From Desulfurococcales archaeon (GTDB taxonomy: Archaea > Thermoproteota > Thermoprotei_A > Sulfolobales > NBVN01), in contig WAKQ01000005.1 in assembly GCA_015523295.1 (NCBI GenBank), positions 1-34,164 of the forward strand: 34,164 nt of DNA. The letters run 5' to 3'. Positions 307 to 10,864 of this stretch are shown here, piece after piece (within the stretch, counting starts at the first letter, position 1; each line of letters opens with the position of its first letter). The position numbers and the translations under genes were made by a program. The notes below the pieces were generated by a model. The model saw only the letters and a program-made list of their open reading frames with translations. It did not search any database and had not been told where the DNA came from.

Positions 307-1515
307 TTATTGCTGGAGTGATTCACCTAGCTCGGCGAGGTCAAGGCCGTTCTTCTGTTCTTCATCAGGTACCCTGACAGTCATGACTCTCTCGAGGATT
401 AGTAATATCAAGTAAGTCATTATGAATGGGTATATAGCTCCTAGGAGTGCTGCAGCTACTTCCTTGCCGAAGAAGACAGCATTGCCGTAGATCAGTCCAT
501 TGCTTCCCAGCACGGCCGCTGAGCCGAAGATGCCTAGAAGTATAACTCCCGTGAGTCCACCCATGCCATGCACTCCCCACACATCTAAAACATCGTCCCA
601 GCCTCTCCTGTTTTTAAGGGCTACTGAGGCGTAGGCTACTAGGGACGCAACTATACCTACTATCATTGCTGCCTGAGGCTGTATAAAGCCTGCAGTAGGG
701 GTTACCGTTGCAAGGCCGGCTATTGCCCCCGTGCAGAAGCCTGCAGTAGTTATTTTACCGCCTTTAAGAACGTCTATAAGAACCCAGGTCACCGCCGCAA
801 ACGCAGCAGCTACTTGAGTGTTTGTGAACGCTACTGCGGCATCACCTCCAGCCCTCAACGCACTTCCTGCGTTAAAACCGAACCACCCGAACCATAGCAA
901 TGCAGTACCTAAGGCAACAAGTAGGAGATTATGAGGTTTCTCACTATATTTCCTCTTACCTAGGAAGAACACCGTCGCTAATGCTGAAAAACCTGCTAGC
1001 TCATGGACTACGATACCGCCGGCGAAGTCCTCAACCCCCCACCTCTGGAGGAATCCACCTCCCCAAACCCAGTGGGCTACAGGGAAATACACTAGGAAGA
1101 GCCATAGCGTGAGGAACGTAATGTAGGCTTTGAACTTCATCTTACCTGCGAAGGCCCCAGTTATTAATGCGGGTGTGATGATAGCGAACATTAACTGGAA
1201 CATAGCAAAAGCTAGTACGGGGATCTTGTACGCCGTCAATATAGAGTATTCGTTAACATTCAGTAGGAGTGCATAACGTAGATTGCCTATGACACCTCCG
1301 ACGTCAGGGCCGAATGCTAGTGTATATCCGATAAGCACCCAAATAATGGTGGTCCACCCAAGTGAGAACAGGGATTCCATTAAGATGGTTAGCACGCTCT
1401 TCCTGCCGACCAATCCGCCATAGAATAGGCCTAATCCAGGAGTCATTATCATTACTAGCGCGGCTGAGATGAGAACGAAGGCGGTGTTCCCATTACTGAG
1501 TAGCAAGGGGTCCAA
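307..1515 (-). CDS. amt: ammonium transporter (Amt/MEP/Rh family)
   Basis: A polytopic membrane protein of 402 residues, the usual Amt length, that carries ammonium across the cytoplasmic membrane as a trimer. About eleven hydrophobic segments are visible. The Amt signature DFAGGIVVHELAGFSALA lies at 163-180. The twin pore histidines are H171 and H316 (GVHGMGG). The N-terminal segment ends in the typical GLGLFYGGLVGRKS. The start is a TTG at 1515 preceded by GGTGG at a suitable distance; the next in-frame start lies inside the first helix. The gene stands alone on the minus strand and no glnK gene follows it in the window, which is common but not universal for amt. The family assignment is very sure; the exact start is less so. 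Confidence 0.96.
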   Translation of the reverse strand: MDPLLLSNGNTAFVLISAALVMIMTPGLGLFYGGLVGRKSVLTILMESLFSLGWTTIIWVLIGYTLAFGPDVGGVIGNLRYALLLNVNEYSILTAYKIPVLAFAMFQLMFAIITPALITGAFAGKMKFKAYITFLTLWLFLVYFPVAHWVWGGGFLQRWGVEDFAGGIVVHELAGFSALATVFFLGKRKYSEKPHNLLLVALGTALLWFGWFGFNAGSALRAGGDAAVAFTNTQVAAAFAAVTWVLIDVLKGGKITTAGFCTGAIAGLATVTPTAGFIQPQAAMIVGIVASLVAYASVALKNRRGWDDVLDVWGVHGMGGLTGVILLGIFGSAAVLGSNGLIYGNAVFFGKEVAAALLGAIYPFIMTYLILLILERVMTVRVPDEEQKNGLDLAELGESLQQ

Positions 1516-2187: not shown

Positions 2188-2817
2188 CTACCTTCTCCTC
2201 TTTTCGAGCATCTGCTTAACTTTTTTCATGCGTGTTTTGTCCTCCCTCTCCCTCTCCTCAAACTTCATTGTCAGGACCTTGATTGTCGCCTCTATCCTCG
2301 GGATGAGGATGTTCTCAAGGGCGTTAACTCTTCTCCTGACCTTGGATACCTCTCTACCGATGAGAAGTATTGACTCCTCGATCTCGGCAAGCCTGAGGAC
2401 GTCCTTCATTACTTCGTCATAGCATTTTCCCGCCTCAATGAGGGTCAGCGGGTAGATTGAGGGGTCATAGCTTCTCTCTCTTCTAGAGACCTCCGTAACA
2501 GGGACTTTAACGCCTGCAACGACTCTAGTCCCTATAACTACCTCAGTCTCCTCTCCCCTAGCTCTGGAGAAGGACTTAACGATTAAAGGAGATGTAAGCA
2601 TTAGTGAATCAGCCAGCAATTCCTCACAGCGGGTGATTTTACTGTGGATCTCACTCCTTAAGGACATGCCCTCCCTTATTAGGGAGATGAGCTCTTGGGA
2701 TAGGATTATTAGTCTGTCTTTAAGTACCTTATGAAGCCTTTTAGCTACTTTGATCCTGCTCTTAAGTCTTATTAGCTCTATCTTTGTAGGTCTTACCTTA
2801 AGCGTCTCCTGGGACAT
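2188..2817 (-). CDS. atpD: A-type ATP synthase subunit D (central rotor shaft)
   Basis: A 209-residue protein, the usual length for subunit D of A/V-type ATPases. Subunit D forms the coiled-coil shaft that turns inside the A3B3 head and transmits rotation. The N-terminal helix has the family pattern (KVRPTKIELIRLKSRIKVAKRLHKVLKDR at the start, long leucine and arginine heptads). The C-terminal helix contains RRVNALENILIPRIEATIK (residues about 164-182), the strongest family signature. The start ATG overlaps the atpB stop (TAATG), so translation is coupled. The gene is followed by UPF0216. Confidence 0.96.
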   Translation of the reverse strand: MSQETLKVRPTKIELIRLKSRIKVAKRLHKVLKDRLIILSQELISLIREGMSLRSEIHSKITRCEELLADSLMLTSPLIVKSFSRARGEETEVVIGTRVVAGVKVPVTEVSRRERSYDPSIYPLTLIEAGKCYDEVMKDVLRLAEIEESILLIGREVSKVRRRVNALENILIPRIEATIKVLTMKFEEREREDKTRMKKVKQMLEKRRR

Positions 2818-4220
2818 TAAGTACCGCCCTTACTCCTATACCTCGGATGGTACTTCCTTATGATGTCAGTGCTTATCAGCTTCAGATCCTCCTCAGGAAG
2901 TGTGGCTAGCAACTCCCAACCTATGTCAAGGGTCTCCTCTATTGTCCTCCTCTCATACTCTCCCTGATTCACGAACTTTCTTTCGAAGAGGTCTGCGAAT
3001 CTCAAGTATTTCTTATCGACCTCGCTGAGGGACTCAGTGCCTATTATAGCTGAGAGCTCTCTGAGATATTGGCCTTCAGTATACGCAGCTATCAACTGCA
3101 TGAACACCTGATAATGATCATCTCTCGTCTTCCCAGGCCCCACGCCATCCTTCATCAGCCTTGAAAGAGAGAGGAGTATGTCTATAGGCGGATACACGCC
3201 TTTTCGGTGCATGTCCCTGGAGAGGACGATCTGCCCTTCAGTGATGTAGCCAGTTAAATCAGGTATTGGGTGGGTTATGTCGTCGTTAGGCATCGTCAAT
3301 ATGGGCATCTGGGTCACGGATCCCGTCATTCCCTTAATCCTTCCTGCTCTCTCGTAGATAGTTGCTAGATCCGTGTACATGTAGCCGGGATATCCCCTTC
3401 TACCTGGAACTTCTTCTCTCGCTGCGGACAGTTCCCTTAGAGCCTCGCAGTAGTTTGTCATGTCGGTCATTACCACGAGTACGTGCATTCCATACTTCCA
3501 TGCAAGGAATTCAGCGGTGGTGAGCGCGACTCTAGGTATAGCTATTCTCTCAATGACTGGTGAGGCAGCCGTATTTATGAATGACACAACGTTCTCCACA
3601 CTCCCTGCCTTCTTCAGGGACTCCATGAAGAAGTTGGCTTCCTCATAGGTCACTCCGATGGCTGCGAAGACCACAGCGAAGCGCTCCTCCTTCCCCTTAA
3701 CCCTGGCCTGTCTGACTATCTGTGCCGCTATCCTGTTGTGGGGTAGGCCTGAACCGCTGAAGATGGGCAACTTCTGCCCTCTGACGATCGAGTAAAGCCC
3801 ATCTATCGCTGAGATCCCGGTTTCAATGAATTCTGAGGGTGGCGTTCTCTCAGCAGGGTTCATTGGTGCACCGTTGATATCTAGCCATTCTTCAGGGACT
3901 ATCTCAGGTTTACCGTCGATAGGTCTTGCAAGGCCGTCGAAGGTCCTTCCAAGCATGTCCAAGGAAACGGGGATTTTGAGGGTCTCCCCCTTAAACCTGA
4001 CTGCTACAGATTTAACATCGATTTCGCCAACGCCGCCGAAGACCTGGATAACCGCAACCTCCTTGGATACATCAATAACCTGCCCCAGCCTTGTCTCACC
4101 CGAGCTGAGATCTACTTCGACAACCTCGTTATACTGTATTCCAGGTATGGCCTCCACGAAGAGGAGTGAGCCCTTAGCGCTTAACGCCTTCCTGACCTCT
4201 TTAACGCTGAGGGATGTCAC
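2817..4220 (-). CDS. atpB: A-type ATP synthase subunit B (regulatory head subunit)
   Basis: A 467-residue non-catalytic nucleotide-binding-fold subunit that alternates with subunit A in the head. The P-loop position is degenerate (SGSGLPHN at 155-162), as expected for archaeal B subunits. The stretch [32 protein letters not shown] at 91-122 and [22 protein letters not shown] further on are typical. The start is GTG at 4220, overlapping the atpA stop by 4 nt (GTGA), with GGAGGGG just upstream inside the atpA tail. It is transcribed leftward between atpA and atpD. Confidence 0.97.
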
Positions 4221-5992
4221 TTCTTCTCCCCTCCAATCAACTCACTGAAGGTTTTATGTATCTCATCTATGAGGGATTTGAATGTTTCAGCAAATTTCTC
4301 GCCGGGTACCTCCTTCATCCTCGCTATTTTCACCCTCAAGGGCAGCTCCCTTATTTTCTGAAGGGAAACGCCTGAGGAGAGGGCCTTGTCAGCCTCATGG
4401 TAGAATTCAAGGATGGCCTTCAACATCATCACTGTTTTCTCTGGAGGGCTGTATGCATCGACCGGGTGGAAGGCGTTTTGCTGTAGGAAGTCCTCTCTAA
4501 TCATTCTTGCAGCATCGAGCAGGAGCTTATCATCGTCGGGCAATGCGTCTGGGCCAACTAGCCTCACGATCTCCATTAATTCGTTCTCCCTCTGAAGTAT
4601 CTTTAGAGCTTCGTTTCTCACCTGGAGCCAGTCGTTGAAGAGCTTCCTCCACCACCTCTCGACACTCTCCACGTAGAGGGAGTAGCTCATGAGCCAGCTA
4701 ACCGCTGGAAAATGTCTCCTGTTGGCTAGCGCTATGTCGAGCGCTATCAACGTTCCAATATATCTCAACGTGTTCTGAGTCACCGGTTCACTGAAGTCTG
4801 CCCCAGGGGGTGAGACTGCCCCCACGATCGTTAAGGAGCCTTCCCTTGTCGGGCTGCCTGAACACACGACTCTCCCAGACCTCTCATAGAACTCTGCAAG
4901 CCTGGAACCCAGGTATGCCGGGAAGCCCTCCTCGCCGGGCATCTCCTCAAGCCTTGCGCTGATCTCCCTCATCGCTTCAGCCCACCTTGAGGTGGAGTCG
5001 GCTACCATGAGCACATCATAGCCCATGTCCCTAAAGTATTCCCCTATGGTAACTCCTAAGAACACGCTGGTCTCCCTTGCAGCTACAGGCATGTTGGAGG
5101 TATTAGCTATGAAGACTGCCTTCTCAGCTAAGGGTCTACCTGACTTGGGATCCTTTAACTTAAGAAAGGAGTGAAGAGCGTCAGACATTTCATTCCCTCT
5201 CTCACCGCAACCAACATATATGTTTAACTGTGTCCTAGCCCATTTTGTAAGGGTTTGGAGGAGAACGGTCTTTCCCGACCCGAACCCGCCGGGGACGGCT
5301 GCTTTTCCACCCCTAGCTATCGGGAACATCATGTCGAGAACCCTTGTACCTGTTATTAAGGGTTCTACAGGCTCAAGCCTCTTTGTATAGGGCCTCGGCT
5401 TTCTGACAGGCCATTTCTGCATCATCTGTATTTCCTTTAATTTACCTCCCCCTAAATCCACCACTGCTATAGTGTCCTCAATGGTATAGTCACCGTCTGG
5501 AGAGATCTCTTTAAGGGTTCCCGAGACCCCTGGGGGCACCATTATCTTGTGTTCTATTAGCGGGGTCTCCTGAACGCTTCCTAACACCATCCCGGGCTCT
5601 ATCTTATCACCAGGTTTCAACGTGCTCGATCTGGTGAAAGGCCACTTCACATCCCTTGGGAGCGAGTTCACCTTAACGCCTTTCTTGATGAAAGGGCCTA
5701 TAAGGCTGCCTAAAACTGATAGAGGCCTTTGAAGGCCATCGAAGACCTTACCGACAATCCCCGGACCTAGCTCGGCTGAGAGAAGGTGCCCAGTGCCTTC
5801 AACCTCCTCCCCAACCCTAAGCCCTGATGTGTCCTCGTACACTTGAATGAATGCCCTGTCCTCCTGAAGCCCTATTATCTCACCTATGAGCTTATCGTCA
5901 CCGACGTAAACGACTTCATAGACCATTGAACCCCTCATACCCTCAGCTATGACGAGAGGGCCTGAAACCCTCAATACTTTACCTACTACCAC
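4217..5992 (-). CDS. atpA: A-type ATP synthase subunit A (catalytic)
   Basis: A 591-residue catalytic subunit that hydrolyses or makes ATP in the cytosolic head. The Walker A loop GGFGSGKT is at 235-242. The non-homologous insert typical of A/V-type A subunits lies between about 110 and 200, including [29 protein letters not shown] and the Walker B strand [21 protein letters not shown] with its conserved flanks are intact, as are [19 protein letters not shown] and [22 protein letters not shown]. No intein is present. The start is GTG at 5992 with a strong GGAGGTG site embedded in the last codons of atpF, 3 nt after its stop. Confidence 0.98.
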
Positions 5993-5995
5993 GCT

Positions 5996-6349
5996 TCACA
6001 CCTCCAAACTGATACCTAAATAAGCCCTTACAAGCCTATTGTAGTATTCTTTAACGTTCATTTTATTTACCTCTCTTGCTGAAGGAAGGTACAATATAAG
6101 GGGGTAAGGGGATGTACGTCTAAAGCTCTCTACATACTCTCTAAGCCAATCCTGCACTATAATAATCCCGTAGCTGGAGTCTTCGAACAACTCGGAAATC
6201 AGTTTGCCTATCTTCTCCTTCAGGGATTTTCCCTCATCTTTCTTGGTATTGATGATGTATGTTTTGGAGACTCCTGCGAGCCTGAACCCATTAACGAATA
6301 ACTCATCCCCTATGACAGCAACTTTCTTCTTACTCGGTAAGAAACTCAT
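5996..6349 (-). CDS. atpF: A-type ATP synthase subunit F
   Basis: A 117-residue small central-stalk subunit with a Rossmann-like fold. Family pattern: strand KKVAVIGDELFVNGFRLAGV at the N-terminus, then SYGIIIVQDWL (residues about 78-88) as the second core strand, and PYPLILYLPSARE near the C-terminus. It binds subunit D and modulates activity. The start ATG lies inside the end of atpC, a 20-nt overlap, and its stop is 3 nt before atpA. The position between C and A in the operon supports the call. Confidence 0.93.
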   Translation of the reverse strand: MSFLPSKKKVAVIGDELFVNGFRLAGVSKTYIINTKKDEGKSLKEKIGKLISELFEDSSYGIIIVQDWLREYVESFRRTSPYPLILYLPSAREVNKMNVKEYYNRLVRAYLGISLEV

Positions 6350-7277
6350 ACACCCTCACCACATCATCTAATTTACTTCTGATGTATTCACCCCTATATC
6401 CGAGGTTGAGAAGGGTAAGAAGATATGATATGAAGAGGCTCTCCCACTCCTTGAGAAGTAGGTAGCGGAGTAACGTGCCCCTGGTGAGAGGCTTAAAAGC
6501 TAGGAAACGGTCGCAGCATGCAAGGCTGGCAACATTGAAGAAAAGCTCTAGGAGGAAGGGATTTGAGGTGATCTCACTTATTATCTTCTCATTGAGGTGG
6601 AGGTTTGCAAGTACATTTGCATTACCTGTTTTTCTAACTTTCATTATACACGTGCTATATTTCATAATACATGAAATGCATTTTACCGCTTCTGGAGCGC
6701 CTTTTAACAGGCTGCTTAGCTGGCTCCATATTTTCCCCTGAAGTTCATTGTATACATTATAGAGATTTAGGTCCCTGAGTTTTAAACCTCTGTAAGCTGT
6801 GAGAAGTTGGGAGAGGTTCTGAAGCCCCGGTGTCTTCATCTTATGAAACTCTCTCACCATGTTGTCAACTGTTTCGGATTTCTGCACTGCCTCAGAAACT
6901 TCGTGAAGGATGGGATATCGGGGAATTTCCTTACATTGTAGGGAATAGAAGAGAGCATTTAAAGCGTAGCGGGACATGTAGACGTCAATGATTTGAAATA
7001 AGCCTTCAGATATTTCTATAAGTTTTGCCGTTTTGATAAGGTCCTCAATCCAGCATTTCATTAGATTCTCAAATATTGCATCGCTTTGAGGAAGATTATC
7101 GATTTTAATATTTCTCTGAATGCATTGCAATACGTTGAAATTGCTTATAGTCGATATGAGGTCTGAAGGAGTATTTATGAGGTGGCTACGGATACTCGCG
7201 ACAGACTTTGGGGTAAGGGCTCTATCCGCATATAGTTTTACCTTGGTTAAAAACTTCAGATCTTTCATGTAACTCAT
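6330..7277 (-). CDS. atpC: A-type ATP synthase subunit C (V-type d-like), divergent
   Basis: A 315-residue mostly helical protein in the operon slot of subunit C, the funnel-shaped adaptor that links the central stalk to the membrane rotor. Sequence signals are weak but fit the family: the N-terminal KVKLYADRALTPKSVASIRS and the C-terminal LEWESLFISYLLTLL-type helix followed by GYRGEYIRSKLDDVVRVYEF resemble the repeated helical segments of V-type subunit d. The start ATG is 3 nt after the atpE stop with GAAGGG ahead of it. The gene is AT-richer and less conserved than atpA and atpB, as usual for this subunit. The call rests on length, helical pattern and order. Confidence 0.85.
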   Translation of the reverse strand: MSYMKDLKFLTKVKLYADRALTPKSVASIRSHLINTPSDLISTISNFNVLQCIQRNIKIDNLPQSDAIFENLMKCWIEDLIKTAKLIEISEGLFQIIDVYMSRYALNALFYSLQCKEIPRYPILHEVSEAVQKSETVDNMVREFHKMKTPGLQNLSQLLTAYRGLKLRDLNLYNVYNELQGKIWSQLSSLLKGAPEAVKCISCIMKYSTCIMKVRKTGNANVLANLHLNEKIISEITSNPFLLELFFNVASLACCDRFLAFKPLTRGTLLRYLLLKEWESLFISYLLTLLNLGYRGEYIRSKLDDVVRVYEFLTE

Positions 7278-7280
7278 TTC

Positions 7281-7877
7281 CTAACCCTTCAAGATTTCCT
7301 TGTTGACCTCATCATAGAGGATGCTCAATGCTCTTTCCAATCGGGTTGAATATGTATTATCTATGGCTATAGTGCCATCTACATTCTCCAATATGAGCCC
7401 TCCAAGATATTTTTCATCTATTTCTTTGATCTCTTCAACTTCCTCATCTAGTCCAAGCTCTTTCAAGGCATTTTTAAGAACTTCCACATCCCTCGCAAGG
7501 ACTTTGATTACGAATTTATCCTTTATTATGGATTGACCAGCTGAATCCTTTAGGAGGTTTTTAATTGATTGCTCTCTAGCCTTAGGAGGTAGCTCTATGA
7601 GCCTCTTTTTAGCTTCCTCCACTAAATTGTCTAGGAGGGCTCTCTTAAGCTGGAGGAGTTTCATGTTTACCTCCATAGACCTACTTACGTATTCCCTGTT
7701 CCATTTCTCCCTAAGTTCTGAGAGAGCTTTCATTCGCTCTCTTTCAAGCCTTCTTTTGTACTCATGCTGGGCTTCGTCAATTATTTTTTCTGCTTCCCTT
7801 CTAGCTTCCTCAATTATCTTGGCTGCTTTCTCCCGGGCCTTCTGCATAACGCTCTTCCTTAACTCCTCTAAACTCAC
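7281..7877 (-). CDS. atpE: A-type ATP synthase subunit E (peripheral stalk)
   Basis: A 198-residue peripheral-stalk subunit. The first about 100 residues are a charged helix rich in Ala, Glu, Lys and Arg (KAREKAAKIIEEARREAEKI), which pairs with subunit H as a coiled coil. The C-terminal globular part carries LGGLILENVDGTIAIDNTYSTRLER (about 154-178), a clear E-subunit signature. The start is GTG at 7877 preceded by GGGGGAGAC. It follows atpK by 18 nt and precedes atpC by 3 nt. Confidence 0.95.
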   Translation of the reverse strand: MSLEELRKSVMQKAREKAAKIIEEARREAEKIIDEAQHEYKRRLERERMKALSELREKWNREYVSRSMEVNMKLLQLKRALLDNLVEEAKKRLIELPPKAREQSIKNLLKDSAGQSIIKDKFVIKVLARDVEVLKNALKELGLDEEVEEIKEIDEKYLGGLILENVDGTIAIDNTYSTRLERALSILYDEVNKEILKG

Positions 7878-7895: not shown

Positions 7896-8381
7896 CTATA
7901 TAGAGAGGCCAGCTACCACTACCAGAAGCAGATACCCGAACACCATGCCTAGAATGCCAAACAATTCGATATAAGAGGCAAGTATCATTGTAGAGGTTGA
8001 AATCCTACCCTTAGTCTTCGGGAGCTCTACAATACCCGACATACATACGGAACCCTGATATACAGCTGAATACAGCTCAGCTAGCATCACTCCAAGGCCT
8101 ATTACAAATATAGCTACCCCCTTGGCTAGGGTTACCTGTGCTGTAGGGATAAACGTTAGACCTAACAGGGTGAAGATGAAGCCGTAAAATGTCTGAGTCA
8201 TTGGAAGTGATGAGAGAAGTAACACCCACTTAAACTGAGCAGCATCTTCTGAAAGAACTGAGAGTCCTGCACTCGCTGCTCTGGCAATGCCTATTGTTGA
8301 ACCTATTAGCCCTCCTATAATCCCTAGTGAGACACCAGCTGAAGCTAATAATAATGGATCGACTGGAGATATGCCAGCCAT
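7896..8381 (-). CDS. atpK: A-type ATP synthase proteolipid subunit K (rotor ring)
   Basis: A membrane rotor protein with two hairpins (four helices), the duplicated V-type proteolipid layout. I place the start at ATG 8381 (161 residues) because GAGGGTG lies 9 nt ahead; a GTG at 8393 would add MHEE but abuts the GAGAGG. In the longer numbering the helices are about 16-46, 54-83, 86-124 and 132-163. The ion-site residues match those known from the Na+-binding K ring of Enterococcus hirae: L63, T66 and Q67 (LPMTQ) in helix 2, Q113 (VYQGSV) in helix 3 and E143 (SYIELFGILG) in helix 4. This suggests sodium binding, but proton use cannot be excluded. Confidence 0.95.
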   Translation of the reverse strand: MAGISPVDPLLLASAGVSLGIIGGLIGSTIGIARAASAGLSVLSEDAAQFKWVLLLSSLPMTQTFYGFIFTLLGLTFIPTAQVTLAKGVAIFVIGLGVMLAELYSAVYQGSVCMSGIVELPKTKGRISTSTMILASYIELFGILGMVFGYLLLVVVAGLSI

Positions 8382-8444
8382 TTCTTCATGCACCCTCTCG
8401 TTCTTTACTACTTAGGGTTATTAAGCTCTACGTGCTTGAAGATC

Positions 8445-8499: not shown

Positions 8500-10533
8500 C
8501 TACGTCTTGGCCGAGCCACCACCTATGATTATGTGCTTGGGAAGCACTGCTTTCAAAGGATTGAACTCCCTTCCATCACCTTCATACCATTTAGGTAGGA
8601 ATTCGACAAAACAGAGTCTTAGTGAGTGTACAAAGGCACCAATCACGCCAAAGATTATGGTGATTAAGTTCATTATAAGCATGACAAAACCGGCCACAAT
8701 AACCCCTGCAGCTAGACCTATGATGGGGATCATGCCTTCCATGGACTGAGCTATGCTGATTGAGAGCGAGTTGAAACTTCTAGCCATCATGTACGTCGCA
8801 AGACCTAGTCCTGCAAGCCTGGAGTAAGAAAGCACGTCACCCAGTAGGCCGGTCACTGAGAAGAGCCATAGAATCACTCCGGGACCACCAGAAGACTTAA
8901 CGGTACCGGCTATTATTAGGAAAAGTCCTCCAAGGCTTCCATATAGGAATACGCTAGCTAGACTGCTGCTCAACGGGAATAGGTCATAGTGGAGTATTGA
9001 GTGAAGTAGGTAGGGAATACCGAACAATTCGCCTATGAAAATACCGGCTTCAGTGATCGTTCTCCCTAGATCCTTATCCTTAATGCCCCGCACCAGTGAG
9101 ATGGCGTGGCTGAGGTTGATATGTAGTAAGCCGACAACTAGCGCATATTTTAGGAACCATATAGGGTCAGTAAAGGCAAGGAGTGAAGGCACGAAAGCAT
9201 TCCCTCCCGCAGGGGCAAAGGTCCATCCAGTGCTAGTTCTAACTATGGAGAACCCTGCAAAGGTGTTTGAAAGTACTCCAAACACTGTTGAGGAAATTGA
9301 TAAGGTGAGCAGGAGCTTCTTTAGGGTTTGATAGCCTTCCGAGTAAGGATTATCGACCAGGCCTGTCTTCTCAAGTACATACTTTACAAGTATGAAGGTG
9401 AGAATCCCGTAAACAGCATCAGCAAACATTGTACCGAAGAAAACCATGAAGGAATACATGATAACTGGTGTAGGGTCCCATTCTCTATAGGAAGGCACCC
9501 CGTAGAGCTTAGTAATGAGTTCGAAAGGCCTTACAGGTTTCTTGTTCTTAAGTTTGGTTGGCGGCCTTTTTTCACTTTTCATCTGTGATATAAAATAGGT
9601 CTTGGTAACACGCATAAGTGTTTCCTCTAAGGCCTGCATTTCTGGTTCTGGTACCCATCCTTCAATCCCTATTAGGTAGTCGCCGGCTAGCGCATTTAAT
9701 AATGCATCAATTCTATCCCTATATATGTCGCGGATAACCTTAGCTAGGGCTATATCTGGGGCAATAATGTTCAGCAAGCTGCTGAAAGTCTCCTTAGCTT
9801 CCTTTAGCTCTTTAGCTATGTTCTCCTCCTTCTCCTTGAGTTCATTAAAGTATTCTTTCAAAGGCTTAGAAAGTGGTGGAAGCCTTACTATCTCCATCTT
9901 GAACTTGTGTATAAGTTGAAGCACCCTATCTTTTGAGGGATGAAGCCCAACTATAACAGCTATGGTCTCGCCATCGCCCACGTTGCTCTCGGCATATATC
10001 TTTACGTCTGGAGGAAGCGATTGAGTAAATGAAGGAAATAGTGAAGTCTTCCCAATAACAGTAATGGAATAAATAATTCTTCCTTCATAATTTAGATCCC
10101 TCAATAAGTTATCTCCCATAATGGGTAGAAGGTATGTCAGATACTTGAGTTGCTTTCTGATGCTTGAGAGCTCCTCATTCAGCCTCTCTTGGTTATTGAG
10201 GAGGGTGCTAAGGGTTGAATAGTTCTTTTTATGTTCGTTTAGAAGGTTTCTAACGGTTTGAGGGAGCGTTGCTAAGCTAATTTCAGCCTTTAGCTCTATA
10301 TCTTTAGGTACCTCGTAAAAAGATTCTAGAGTTTTGAGAACGTTATCTAACTCTTGGACGAGTGTCCTTTCATTATAGAGCGCTTTTTTATCCTCATCCG
10401 GTATCTTGCCTAGGGGTTCTATGTGAATCAGCCCAGCCTCTTGAAGAGAAGCTATTGCGACATCTTTCATGTCTTTAGGGAGTAGTATTCTGACGTAGGT
10501 AACCTTCTCAGGTGTTGAGAGAAGGATGCCCAT
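8500..10533 (-). CDS. atpI: A-type ATP synthase subunit I (V-type a, stator)
   Basis: A stator subunit of 677 residues from my start. The first about 330 residues are a soluble coiled-coil domain that grips the peripheral stalks. The rest is a membrane domain with about seven or eight helices, forming the ion half-channels against the K ring. Family signatures: FGTMFADAVYGILTFI, LSYSRLAGLGLATYMMARSFN (with the conserved Arg facing the rotor) and LCFVEFLPKWYEGDGREFNP near the end. I prefer ATG 10533 because GGGGG lies just ahead; an in-frame TTG at 10557 would add eight residues and overlap atpH. It starts 1 nt after the atpH stop. Confidence 0.95.
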   Translation of the reverse strand: MGILLSTPEKVTYVRILLPKDMKDVAIASLQEAGLIHIEPLGKIPDEDKKALYNERTLVQELDNVLKTLESFYEVPKDIELKAEISLATLPQTVRNLLNEHKKNYSTLSTLLNNQERLNEELSSIRKQLKYLTYLLPIMGDNLLRDLNYEGRIIYSITVIGKTSLFPSFTQSLPPDVKIYAESNVGDGETIAVIVGLHPSKDRVLQLIHKFKMEIVRLPPLSKPLKEYFNELKEKEENIAKELKEAKETFSSLLNIIAPDIALAKVIRDIYRDRIDALLNALAGDYLIGIEGWVPEPEMQALEETLMRVTKTYFISQMKSEKRPPTKLKNKKPVRPFELITKLYGVPSYREWDPTPVIMYSFMVFFGTMFADAVYGILTFILVKYVLEKTGLVDNPYSEGYQTLKKLLLTLSISSTVFGVLSNTFAGFSIVRTSTGWTFAPAGGNAFVPSLLAFTDPIWFLKYALVVGLLHINLSHAISLVRGIKDKDLGRTITEAGIFIGELFGIPYLLHSILHYDLFPLSSSLASVFLYGSLGGLFLIIAGTVKSSGGPGVILWLFSVTGLLGDVLSYSRLAGLGLATYMMARSFNSLSISIAQSMEGMIPIIGLAAGVIVAGFVMLIMNLITIIFGVIGAFVHSLRLCFVEFLPKWYEGDGREFNPLKAVLPKHIIIGGGSAKT

Positions 10534-10534
10534 C

Positions 10535-10831
10535 CTAGGCCCCCAGACCAGCCACAAGATTAACTAACTTACTTACCAATTGTTCCTTCTTCTGTTCAAA
10601 CAATTCCCTTAATTTTTCAGACTTCACTTTAAAGTTCTCTTCAACCTCATTGATCTTTTTCTTATATTCTTCCTCAACCTCCTTTTTCTCCTCCTCGCTT
10701 AAAGGATCCTTTATCTCCATATTTCTCAGCCTCTCAGCTTCCTCTCTAGCCTTTCTCAAGATCTCCATGGCCTCCCTCTCAGCCTCCTCCACGATTTTCT
10801 CAGCCTCTTTCTCAATTTCCTCCAACGACAT
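10535..10831 (-). CDS. atpH: A-type ATP synthase subunit H (peripheral stalk)
   Basis: A 98-residue, highly charged protein that is almost entirely predicted coiled coil (Glu, Lys and Arg with Ala and Leu heptads, such as AEKIVEEAEREAMEILRKA). This is the AhaH-type subunit that pairs with subunit E in the peripheral stalk. It is the first gene of the operon, as is usual in archaea. ATG 10831 is preferred to the adjacent TTG 10834, with AGGGG about 9 nt ahead. The low-complexity sequence gives little specific homology, so the call leans on position and composition. Confidence 0.88.
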   Translation of the reverse strand: MSLEEIEKEAEKIVEEAEREAMEILRKAREEAERLRNMEIKDPLSEEEKKEVEEEYKKKINEVEENFKVKSEKLRELFEQKKEQLVSKLVNLVAGLGA

Positions 10832-10864
10832 CAATAAGCCCCTAGAAGGATGGGTTAAGTCAAG

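What the first reader, a model, noticed from the sequence alone, without database searches (positions are those of the whole stretch)
7896..8381. Rotor subunit K has the full sodium-site residue set
Leu63, Thr66, Gln67, Gln113 and Glu143 (numbering from the GTG start) stand where the Na+ ligands lie in the Enterococcus hirae K ring, in the same helices and with the same local motifs (LP-x-TQ, Q-G-x-V, Y-x-E-x-x-x-IL). A Na+-coupled ATP synthase would affect how this organism's bioenergetics is read. Proton-coupled rings usually lose some of these polar ligands.
Basis: partly seen in the sequence, partly recalled or inferred. Interest (0 to 1): 0.5.

Follow-up and report, generated by a model that had tools for sequence, protein, structure and literature searches.

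The report
Sodium-type rotor of archaeal ATPase
An archaeon has a rotary ATP-making motor whose rotor subunit carries a full sodium-binding site; many relatives share it and it is fairly ordinary, but the subunit also bears an unexplained extra acidic residue inside the membrane.

Summary
A 165-residue, four-helix K subunit lies on the minus strand (7896-8393, GTG start; the given span begins at Met5). Leu63, Thr66, Gln67, Gln113 and Glu143, plus Tyr70, align with the Enterococcus hirae sodium ligands. The set is kept in 58 of 59 distinct sequences (window included); none of 63 two- or six-helix proteolipid hairpins read from the same phylum has the Gln.

Genome evidence fits sodium coupling in the group: within the order, 35 of 37 genomes with this K have the Mrp subunit MnhE, against 0 of 20 with two-helix c. 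But independent switches are few, and MnhE also occurs with proton-type c elsewhere in the phylum. Catalytic-subunit and RpoB trees conflict, so ATPases were probably exchanged horizontally, also into Chloroflexota.

For this organism the case is weaker. Its 77%-complete assembly shows no Mrp or complex-I-like pump, but a pyrophosphatase with the lysine mark of proton pumps and four cation/proton exchangers. The site says 'can use sodium', not 'does'.

Sodium-type reading likely, coupling unproven; a new member of a known kind.

The parts
7896..8393 (-). K (proteolipid, rotor) subunit, 165 aa, four transmembrane helices, GTG start
   Evidence: PF00137, two stretches; NF006219, 135.9 bits, cut-off 108
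8205..8207 (-). Leu63 (backbone ligand; E. hirae Leu61)
   Evidence: L 50, M 6, F 3 of 59 rows
8196..8198 (-). Thr66 (E. hirae Thr64)
   Evidence: T 57, S 2 of 59 rows
8193..8195 (-). Gln67 (E. hirae Gln65)
   Evidence: 59 of 59 rows
8184..8186 (-). Tyr70 (E. hirae Tyr68, stabilises the carboxylate)
   Evidence: 59 of 59 rows
8076..8078 (-). Glu106, additional conserved carboxylate in helix 3 (E. hirae Gly103)
   Evidence: E 55, Q 4 of 59 rows
8055..8057 (-). Gln113 (E. hirae Gln110)
   Evidence: Q 58, K 1 of 59 rows
7965..7967 (-). Glu143, ion carboxylate (E. hirae Glu139)
   Evidence: 59 of 59 rows
8500..10557 (-). Subunit I (stator), best PDB match E. hirae sodium ATPase subunit I (8wci); Arg580 (8818-8820) and Arg647 (8617-8619) align with Arg of E. 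hirae and Thermus
10535..10834 (-). Probable H/G peripheral-stalk subunit (weak match)
   Evidence: PF03179, E 0.0014, below cut-off
7281..7877 (-). Subunit E
6330..7277 (-). Probable subunit C, by position; only a sub-threshold match
   Evidence: PF01992, E 0.055
5996..6349 (-). Subunit F
4217..5992 (-). Subunit A (catalytic)
2817..4220 (-). Subunit B
2188..2817 (-). Subunit D (central shaft)

Best explanation
This is the rotor subunit of an archaeal A-type ATP synthase/ATPase of the 16-kDa, four-helix, one-site kind, with a sodium-type site. By homology (not shown here) about ten copies form a ring; each Glu143 with Gln113, Thr66, Gln67 and the Leu63 carbonyl holds one Na+ (or H+) between two hairpins and releases it at the stator arginines of subunit I, so that Na+ flow turns the ring and makes ATP, or ATP hydrolysis exports Na+. 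In the wider group the Na+ gradient would come from Mrp-containing Mbh/Mbx-like complexes. In this organism no such complex was found, so the gradient may come from H+/Na+ exchangers fed by a pyrophosphatase, or the enzyme may run as an ATP-driven Na+ exporter. Shown: residues, register, fold, gene set, co-occurrence. Inferred: ring size, ion used, direction.
For: Ligands in register, fold; 58 of 59 rows keep the set; 0 of 63 hairpins of the other type have the Gln. Membrane motor with both stator Arg. Order: MnhE in 35 of 37 genomes with this K against 0 of 20 with two-helix c; two same-genus genomes carry MnhE, one of them with complex-I/hydrogenase-like genes on all three MnhE contigs. Four PF00999 exchanger matches in the own assembly. 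Precedent: P. furiosus, Mrp-type pumps and a Na+-dependent ATP synthase (PMC8415708, passages).
Against: Own assembly (77% complete): no PF01899, PF00361 or PF00146; its pyrophosphatase has the K+-independent, H+-type lysine. MnhE also occurs in 19 of 133 phylum genomes without this K; in the 12 of those 19 whose proteolipid I read, 13 of 13 hairpins lack the Gln. Only two independent K-type switches on firm branches. Known Na+-type rings still favour H+ (PMC3692424). The fold matches proton c subunits as well. Glu106 adds an unknown group.
Confidence: 0.72

Rival explanations
1. The ring keeps the sodium ligands but works mainly with protons, or with both ions, in vivo: a promiscuous enzyme driven by whatever gradient the cell makes (here perhaps a pyrophosphatase proton gradient).
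For: Own assembly: pyrophosphatase with the H+-type lysine and no Mrp module found. Characterised rings are H+-selective and M. acetivorans is reported to couple both ions (PMC3692424, passages). Na+-dependent ATPases can pump H+ without Na+ (PMC2359735, passages).
Against: Full ligand set kept in 58 of 59 rows, while the two-helix c of the order lack part of it; Mrp co-occurrence in the order, including both same-genus genomes.
Confidence: 0.22
2. In this organism the machine is chiefly an ATP-driven Na+ exporter (as E. hirae's is thought to be in vivo), not an ATP synthase. This can hold together with the best explanation.
For: No Mrp or complex-I-like pump found in the own assembly; E. hirae V-ATPase can make ATP in vitro but is thought to export Na+ in vivo (PMC12018189, passages).
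Against: Assembly 77% complete, and only a few pump families were searched; two same-genus genomes have MnhE; A-type enzymes of archaea are usually ATP synthases (recalled).
Confidence: 0.25
3. The residues are inherited from a sodium-type ancestor and are neutral here.
For: Some Na+ ligands persist in proton enzymes (PMC2359735, passages); Thermus c keeps Gln and Thr; 23 of 63 other-type hairpins keep the Ser/Thr.
Against: Invariant or nearly so across 59 rows whose identity to the window is 36-77%.
Confidence: 0.05

Closest known systems
Enterococcus hirae V-type sodium ATPase subunit K (NtpK, 2bl2/8wci)
   Same: Four helices, one ion carboxylate, same five ligands and Tyr in register; subunit I also matches E. 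hirae best.
   Different: 26-28% identity; Glu106 where E. hirae has Gly103, Thr68 for Gly66. Ion use untested.
NCBIfam NF006219 (PRK08344, V-type ATP synthase subunit K); that it stands for the Thermococcales 16-kDa K is recalled
   Same: Above the curated cut-off (135.9 vs 108 bits). The P. furiosus ATP synthase is called Na+-dependent (PMC8415708, passages); a four-helix, one-Na+-site archaeal c subunit is in the title of Mayer 2012 (reference list seen; paper not held).
   Different: Thermococcales sequences were not compared residue by residue here; that they have Gly at position 106 is recalled only.
Fusobacterium nucleatum two-carboxylate c-ring (PMC3692424, passages)
   Same: A second carboxylate inside the membrane that can be replaced by Gln in relatives, which suggests a protonated Glu.
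   Different: There it sits at the Gln32 position, in the ion site; here that position is Gln113 and Glu106 lies seven residues away.
Two-helix (and six-helix) proteolipids of the same phylum
   Same: Same operon role, same ion Glu, same Tyr.
   Different: No Gln at the site in 63 of 63 hairpins read; after the Glu: Ala 21, Gly 19, Ser 19, Thr 4.

Membership tests
Sodium-type four-helix K subunit (E. hirae kind) | Four transmembrane helices from two fused hairpins | tested here: met
   PF00137 in two stretches; AlphaFold helices 13-49, 51-84, 89-122, 132-162; 2bl2 match
Sodium-type four-helix K subunit (E. hirae kind) | One ion carboxylate, in helix 4; none at the helix-2 place | tested here: met
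   Glu143; Met65 at the helix-2 place
Sodium-type four-helix K subunit (E. hirae kind) | Leu, Thr, Gln, Gln, Glu ligand set and Tyr | tested here: met
Sodium-type four-helix K subunit (E. hirae kind) | Na+-dependent activity, Na+ protection from DCCD | not testable with these tools
   needs the enzyme
A-type ATP synthase complex | Genes for A, B, D, E, F, I, K together | tested here: met
   C and H only by place and weak matches
Two-carboxylate Na+ ring (F. nucleatum kind) | Glu at the Gln32/Gln110 position | tested here: not met
   Gln113 there
Proton-type two-helix c | Single hairpin, ligands partly lost | tested here: not met

The most novel reading that the evidence does not exclude
Glu106 makes this clade a distinct rotor type: a sodium site plus a second, conserved carboxylate two helix turns away on helix 3 (towards the outer face, by recalled E. 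hirae topology), permanently protonated (hence Glu/Gln exchange) or forming a relay or second ion place that tunes selectivity or access. In a subclade it is joined by a linked set (Glu at 25, Glu at 142, one extra residue in helix 2).
Probability: 0.2. Interest if true: 0.6.

Novelty: new member of a known kind. Interest (0 to 1): 0.3.

Why it matters
The order holds both sodium-type and proton-type ATPases in close relatives, with ATPases apparently exchanged between lineages and into Chloroflexota. That makes it a natural experiment on what else must change when a cell swaps its coupling ion. The extra Glu106 is a specific, testable structural feature of these rotors.

Tried and rejected
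Considered that the residues are out of register: rejected by two sequence alignments, gap-free across LP-x-TQ-x-x-YGF and across the helix 3 and helix 4 motifs.

Tried to use Mrp co-occurrence as a formal test: the K type changes 4 times on the RpoB tree (MnhE 6 times), with 2 independent pairs on firm branches, both in the expected direction; significance cannot be reached. The naive Fisher values computed (1.9e-13 order, 2.4e-5 phylum) ignore kinship and are not used as evidence.

Tried to place Glu106 in space: the tools gave no atom coordinates (one search shows none in the box), so its distance to the ion is only inferred from helix spacing.

The alignment inserted a gap in the window's helix 3, so its Gln column was wrong; I read the Gln place by eye from the printed 11-letter strings (sixth letter, anchored on the Gln of Thermus and E. 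hirae). Many of these strings (for example L032, L187) have a Gln two letters later, which I count as out of register.

Paper searches showed, in listings and the passages read, no paper on a helix-3 carboxylate in four-helix K; only searches came near that question, and the library lacks most subscription journals, so this shows little. Papers PMC3501044, PMC3271924 and PMC2438407 are not held. Read as passages only: PMC3692424, PMC3035292, PMC2678158, PMC12018189, PMC8415708, PMC6863869, PMC10656485, PMC9408878; PMC2359735 as passages and one section.

Full report
Observation. It sits among A-type ATPase genes on the same strand: weak H, I, K, E, probable C, F, A, B, D. Pfam sees two proteolipid stretches, and the NCBIfam model NF006219 (V-type ATP synthase subunit K) is passed (135.9 bits, cut-off 108). 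Alignment to E. hirae NtpK (E 7.7e-10; profile, E 6e-21) puts Leu63, Thr66, Gln67, Tyr70, Gln113 and Glu143 on Leu61, Thr64, Gln65, Tyr68, Gln110 and Glu139; these are the ligands and the Tyr named in PMC2359735 (passages). The AlphaFold model (alignment of 59, mean pLDDT 95.7) has 2bl2 as its best Foldseek match; by VIA-align 2bl2 (Z 19.9, rmsd 2.3, 153 aligned) is tied with eukaryotic proton-pumping c subunits, so the fold alone says nothing about the ion.

Relatives. A search of 60 genomes (own included) gave 43 with a match, of which 37 carry the four-helix K and six are weak partial hits to two-helix c. All nine genomes of families f2, f3 and f9 and 28 of 31 of f1 have it; 20 genomes of seven other families have two-helix c only; three (G006, G007, G019) have no proteolipid found. 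A named scan by peptide patterns gave 65 loci, not an exhaustive list: Desulfurococcales/Sulfolobales assemblies including Zestosphaera, Staphylothermus, Ignisphaera and Thermogladius, other Thermoproteota, and 11 Chloroflexota/Dehalococcoidia loci. In a 59-row set (window plus 58; rows of 92% identity or more to a kept row, and two rows cut before position 143, were dropped), the full set (Leu/Met/Phe, Thr/Ser, Gln, Tyr, Gln, Glu) is kept in 58; the exception is one of two tandem K genes of a Desulfurococcaceae assembly, with Lys for Gln113.

Contrast. I read 63 hairpins of two- or six-helix proteolipids: 21 from the order (20 genomes) and 42 from elsewhere in the phylum, which is only part of the phylum hits. 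None shows Gln at the site (read by eye because the alignment slipped there). The residue after the ion Glu is Gly in 18 of the 21 from the order; over all 63 it is Ala 21, Gly 19, Ser 19, Thr 4, so 23 keep a hydroxyl ligand. Thermus c keeps the Gln and the Thr but not the second Gln or the Tyr.

Sodium economy in the group. The Mrp subunit MnhE (PF01899) is in 35 of 37 genomes with this K and 0 of 20 with two-helix c only. The two exceptions are the window's own genome (77% complete) and G027 (52%). Of the three genomes without a proteolipid found, two have MnhE. Same-genus G001 has three MnhE genes, with complex-I/hydrogenase-like genes on all three contigs; G002 has one. Over the phylum (two draws of 141 genomes, taken to be the same set), eight have this K and seven of these have MnhE; of the other 133, 19 have MnhE. 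I read proteolipids of 12 of those 19: 13 hairpins, none with the Gln. So MnhE goes with this K but does not imply it. PMC3035292 (passages) says that sodium-dependent ATP synthesis would explain antiporter genes beside hydrogenase genes in Desulfurococcaceae, and PMC2678158 (passages) describes such clusters in Staphylothermus marinus.

Own genome. No MnhE, no PF00361, no PF00146 (their controls ring in 6, 13 and 11 of 14 genomes). It has one membrane pyrophosphatase with Lys where K+-dependent enzymes have Ala, in the column where the K+-insensitive proton pump 8b37 also has Lys. By PMC9408878 (passages) K+-independent enzymes pump H+ and all characterised Na+-pumps are K+-dependent. Against this: the best overall match is the Thermotoga sodium pump 4av3 (493.5 bits against 482.0 for 8b37), so the proton reading rests on that lysine. 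Four PF00999 exchanger matches are present. Other pump families, such as decarboxylases or oxidases, were not searched. Incompleteness may explain the lack of Mrp, but as it stands this genome does not show a sodium generator.

History. On an RpoB tree (47 of 60 genomes, those whose loci I had or fetched) families f1, f2, f3 and f9 are not one clade: 4 changes, AU p 3e-5 (26 rows against 19, quick tree). On the catalytic-subunit tree (88 rows, 74 different: 30 four-helix and 16 two-helix genomes of the 60, the latter giving 17 rows, and 41 of the 65 named loci; 13 named loci left out for length, 12 of them too long, the rest without a full hit) the two ATPase kinds split once, support 99. The ten Chloroflexota rows form one clade (support 100) that groups with archaeal rows of the four-helix kind. 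Two of the 71 rows counted as four-helix (G006, G019) had no K found and were labelled by family. So at least K type and subunit A travelled together against the species tree. Transfer is the simplest reading; an old duplication with repeated losses is not excluded, and the other subunits were not tested. Horizontal transfer of archaeal ATPase operons is known (PMC6863869, title, passages).

Glu106. In helix 3, seven residues before Gln113, Glu106 is Glu in 55 and Gln in 4 of 59 rows, and Glu in 98 and Gln in 6 of 104 rows before thinning, in which some genomes appear twice. By entropy it ranks 30th of 165 positions, behind most ligands. E. hirae has Gly103 there and yeast c' has Cys. It is the only acidic place inside the helices, besides Glu143, kept in most rows. 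If helix 3 runs from outside to inside as in E. hirae (recalled), it should lie about 10 angstroms to the outer side of the ion (inferred). Exchange with Gln, never Asp or Gly in these rows, suggests a protonated side chain, as argued for the second Glu of F. nucleatum (PMC3692424, passages), but it is not the same position. In 18 of 59 rows Glu25, Glu142 and one extra residue in helix 2 occur together; four more rows have only part of this set; the window has none of it.

Verdict. A sodium-type K subunit, correctly read; shared by its group and expected from published logic; coupling ion in this organism unproven; one feature, Glu106, that I could not explain.

Noticed in passing
window 8076-8078 (Glu106): Second carboxylate in helix 3 of K, Glu or Gln in all 59 rows read (window included), Gly in E. 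hirae.
   Followed up: partly
L067:2092-2595 and 2732-3232 (minus strand): Two tandem K genes in one relative (apparently the contig of L132, Desulfurococcaceae Bin S28); the first has Lys in place of the site Gln, which might give mixed rings with fewer working sodium sites.
   Followed up: no
alignment A2 (18 of 59 rows): A subset has a linked trio: Glu at 25 (helix 1), Glu at 142 beside the ion Glu, and one extra residue between positions 69 and 70.
   Followed up: partly
L090, L095, L096, L103, L105, L108, L109, L110, L114, L115, L128: Chloroflexota/Dehalococcoidia contigs carry this K; the ten catalytic subunits read form one clade, which speaks for a real transfer rather than contamination.
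   Followed up: partly
L071, L078, L083, L084, L085, L087, L088, L091, L101, L107, L112, L113: Catalytic A subunit frames of 763-1152 aa, probably intein insertions.
   Followed up: no
G055 (L045, L068, L209, L210): Two proteolipids and two divergent A subunits in one single-contig genome: probably two ATPases; the second A has the longest branch of the tree.
   Followed up: no
window 307-1515: Ammonium transporter gene near the distal end of the ATPase genes, separated from them by a DUF61 gene (1748-2182).
   Followed up: no
G000:C14:19241-21235 (L294): Membrane pyrophosphatase with the lysine of K+-independent proton pumps, though its best overall PDB match is a sodium pump; the only one of the four pump families searched that was found in the own assembly.
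   Followed up: yes
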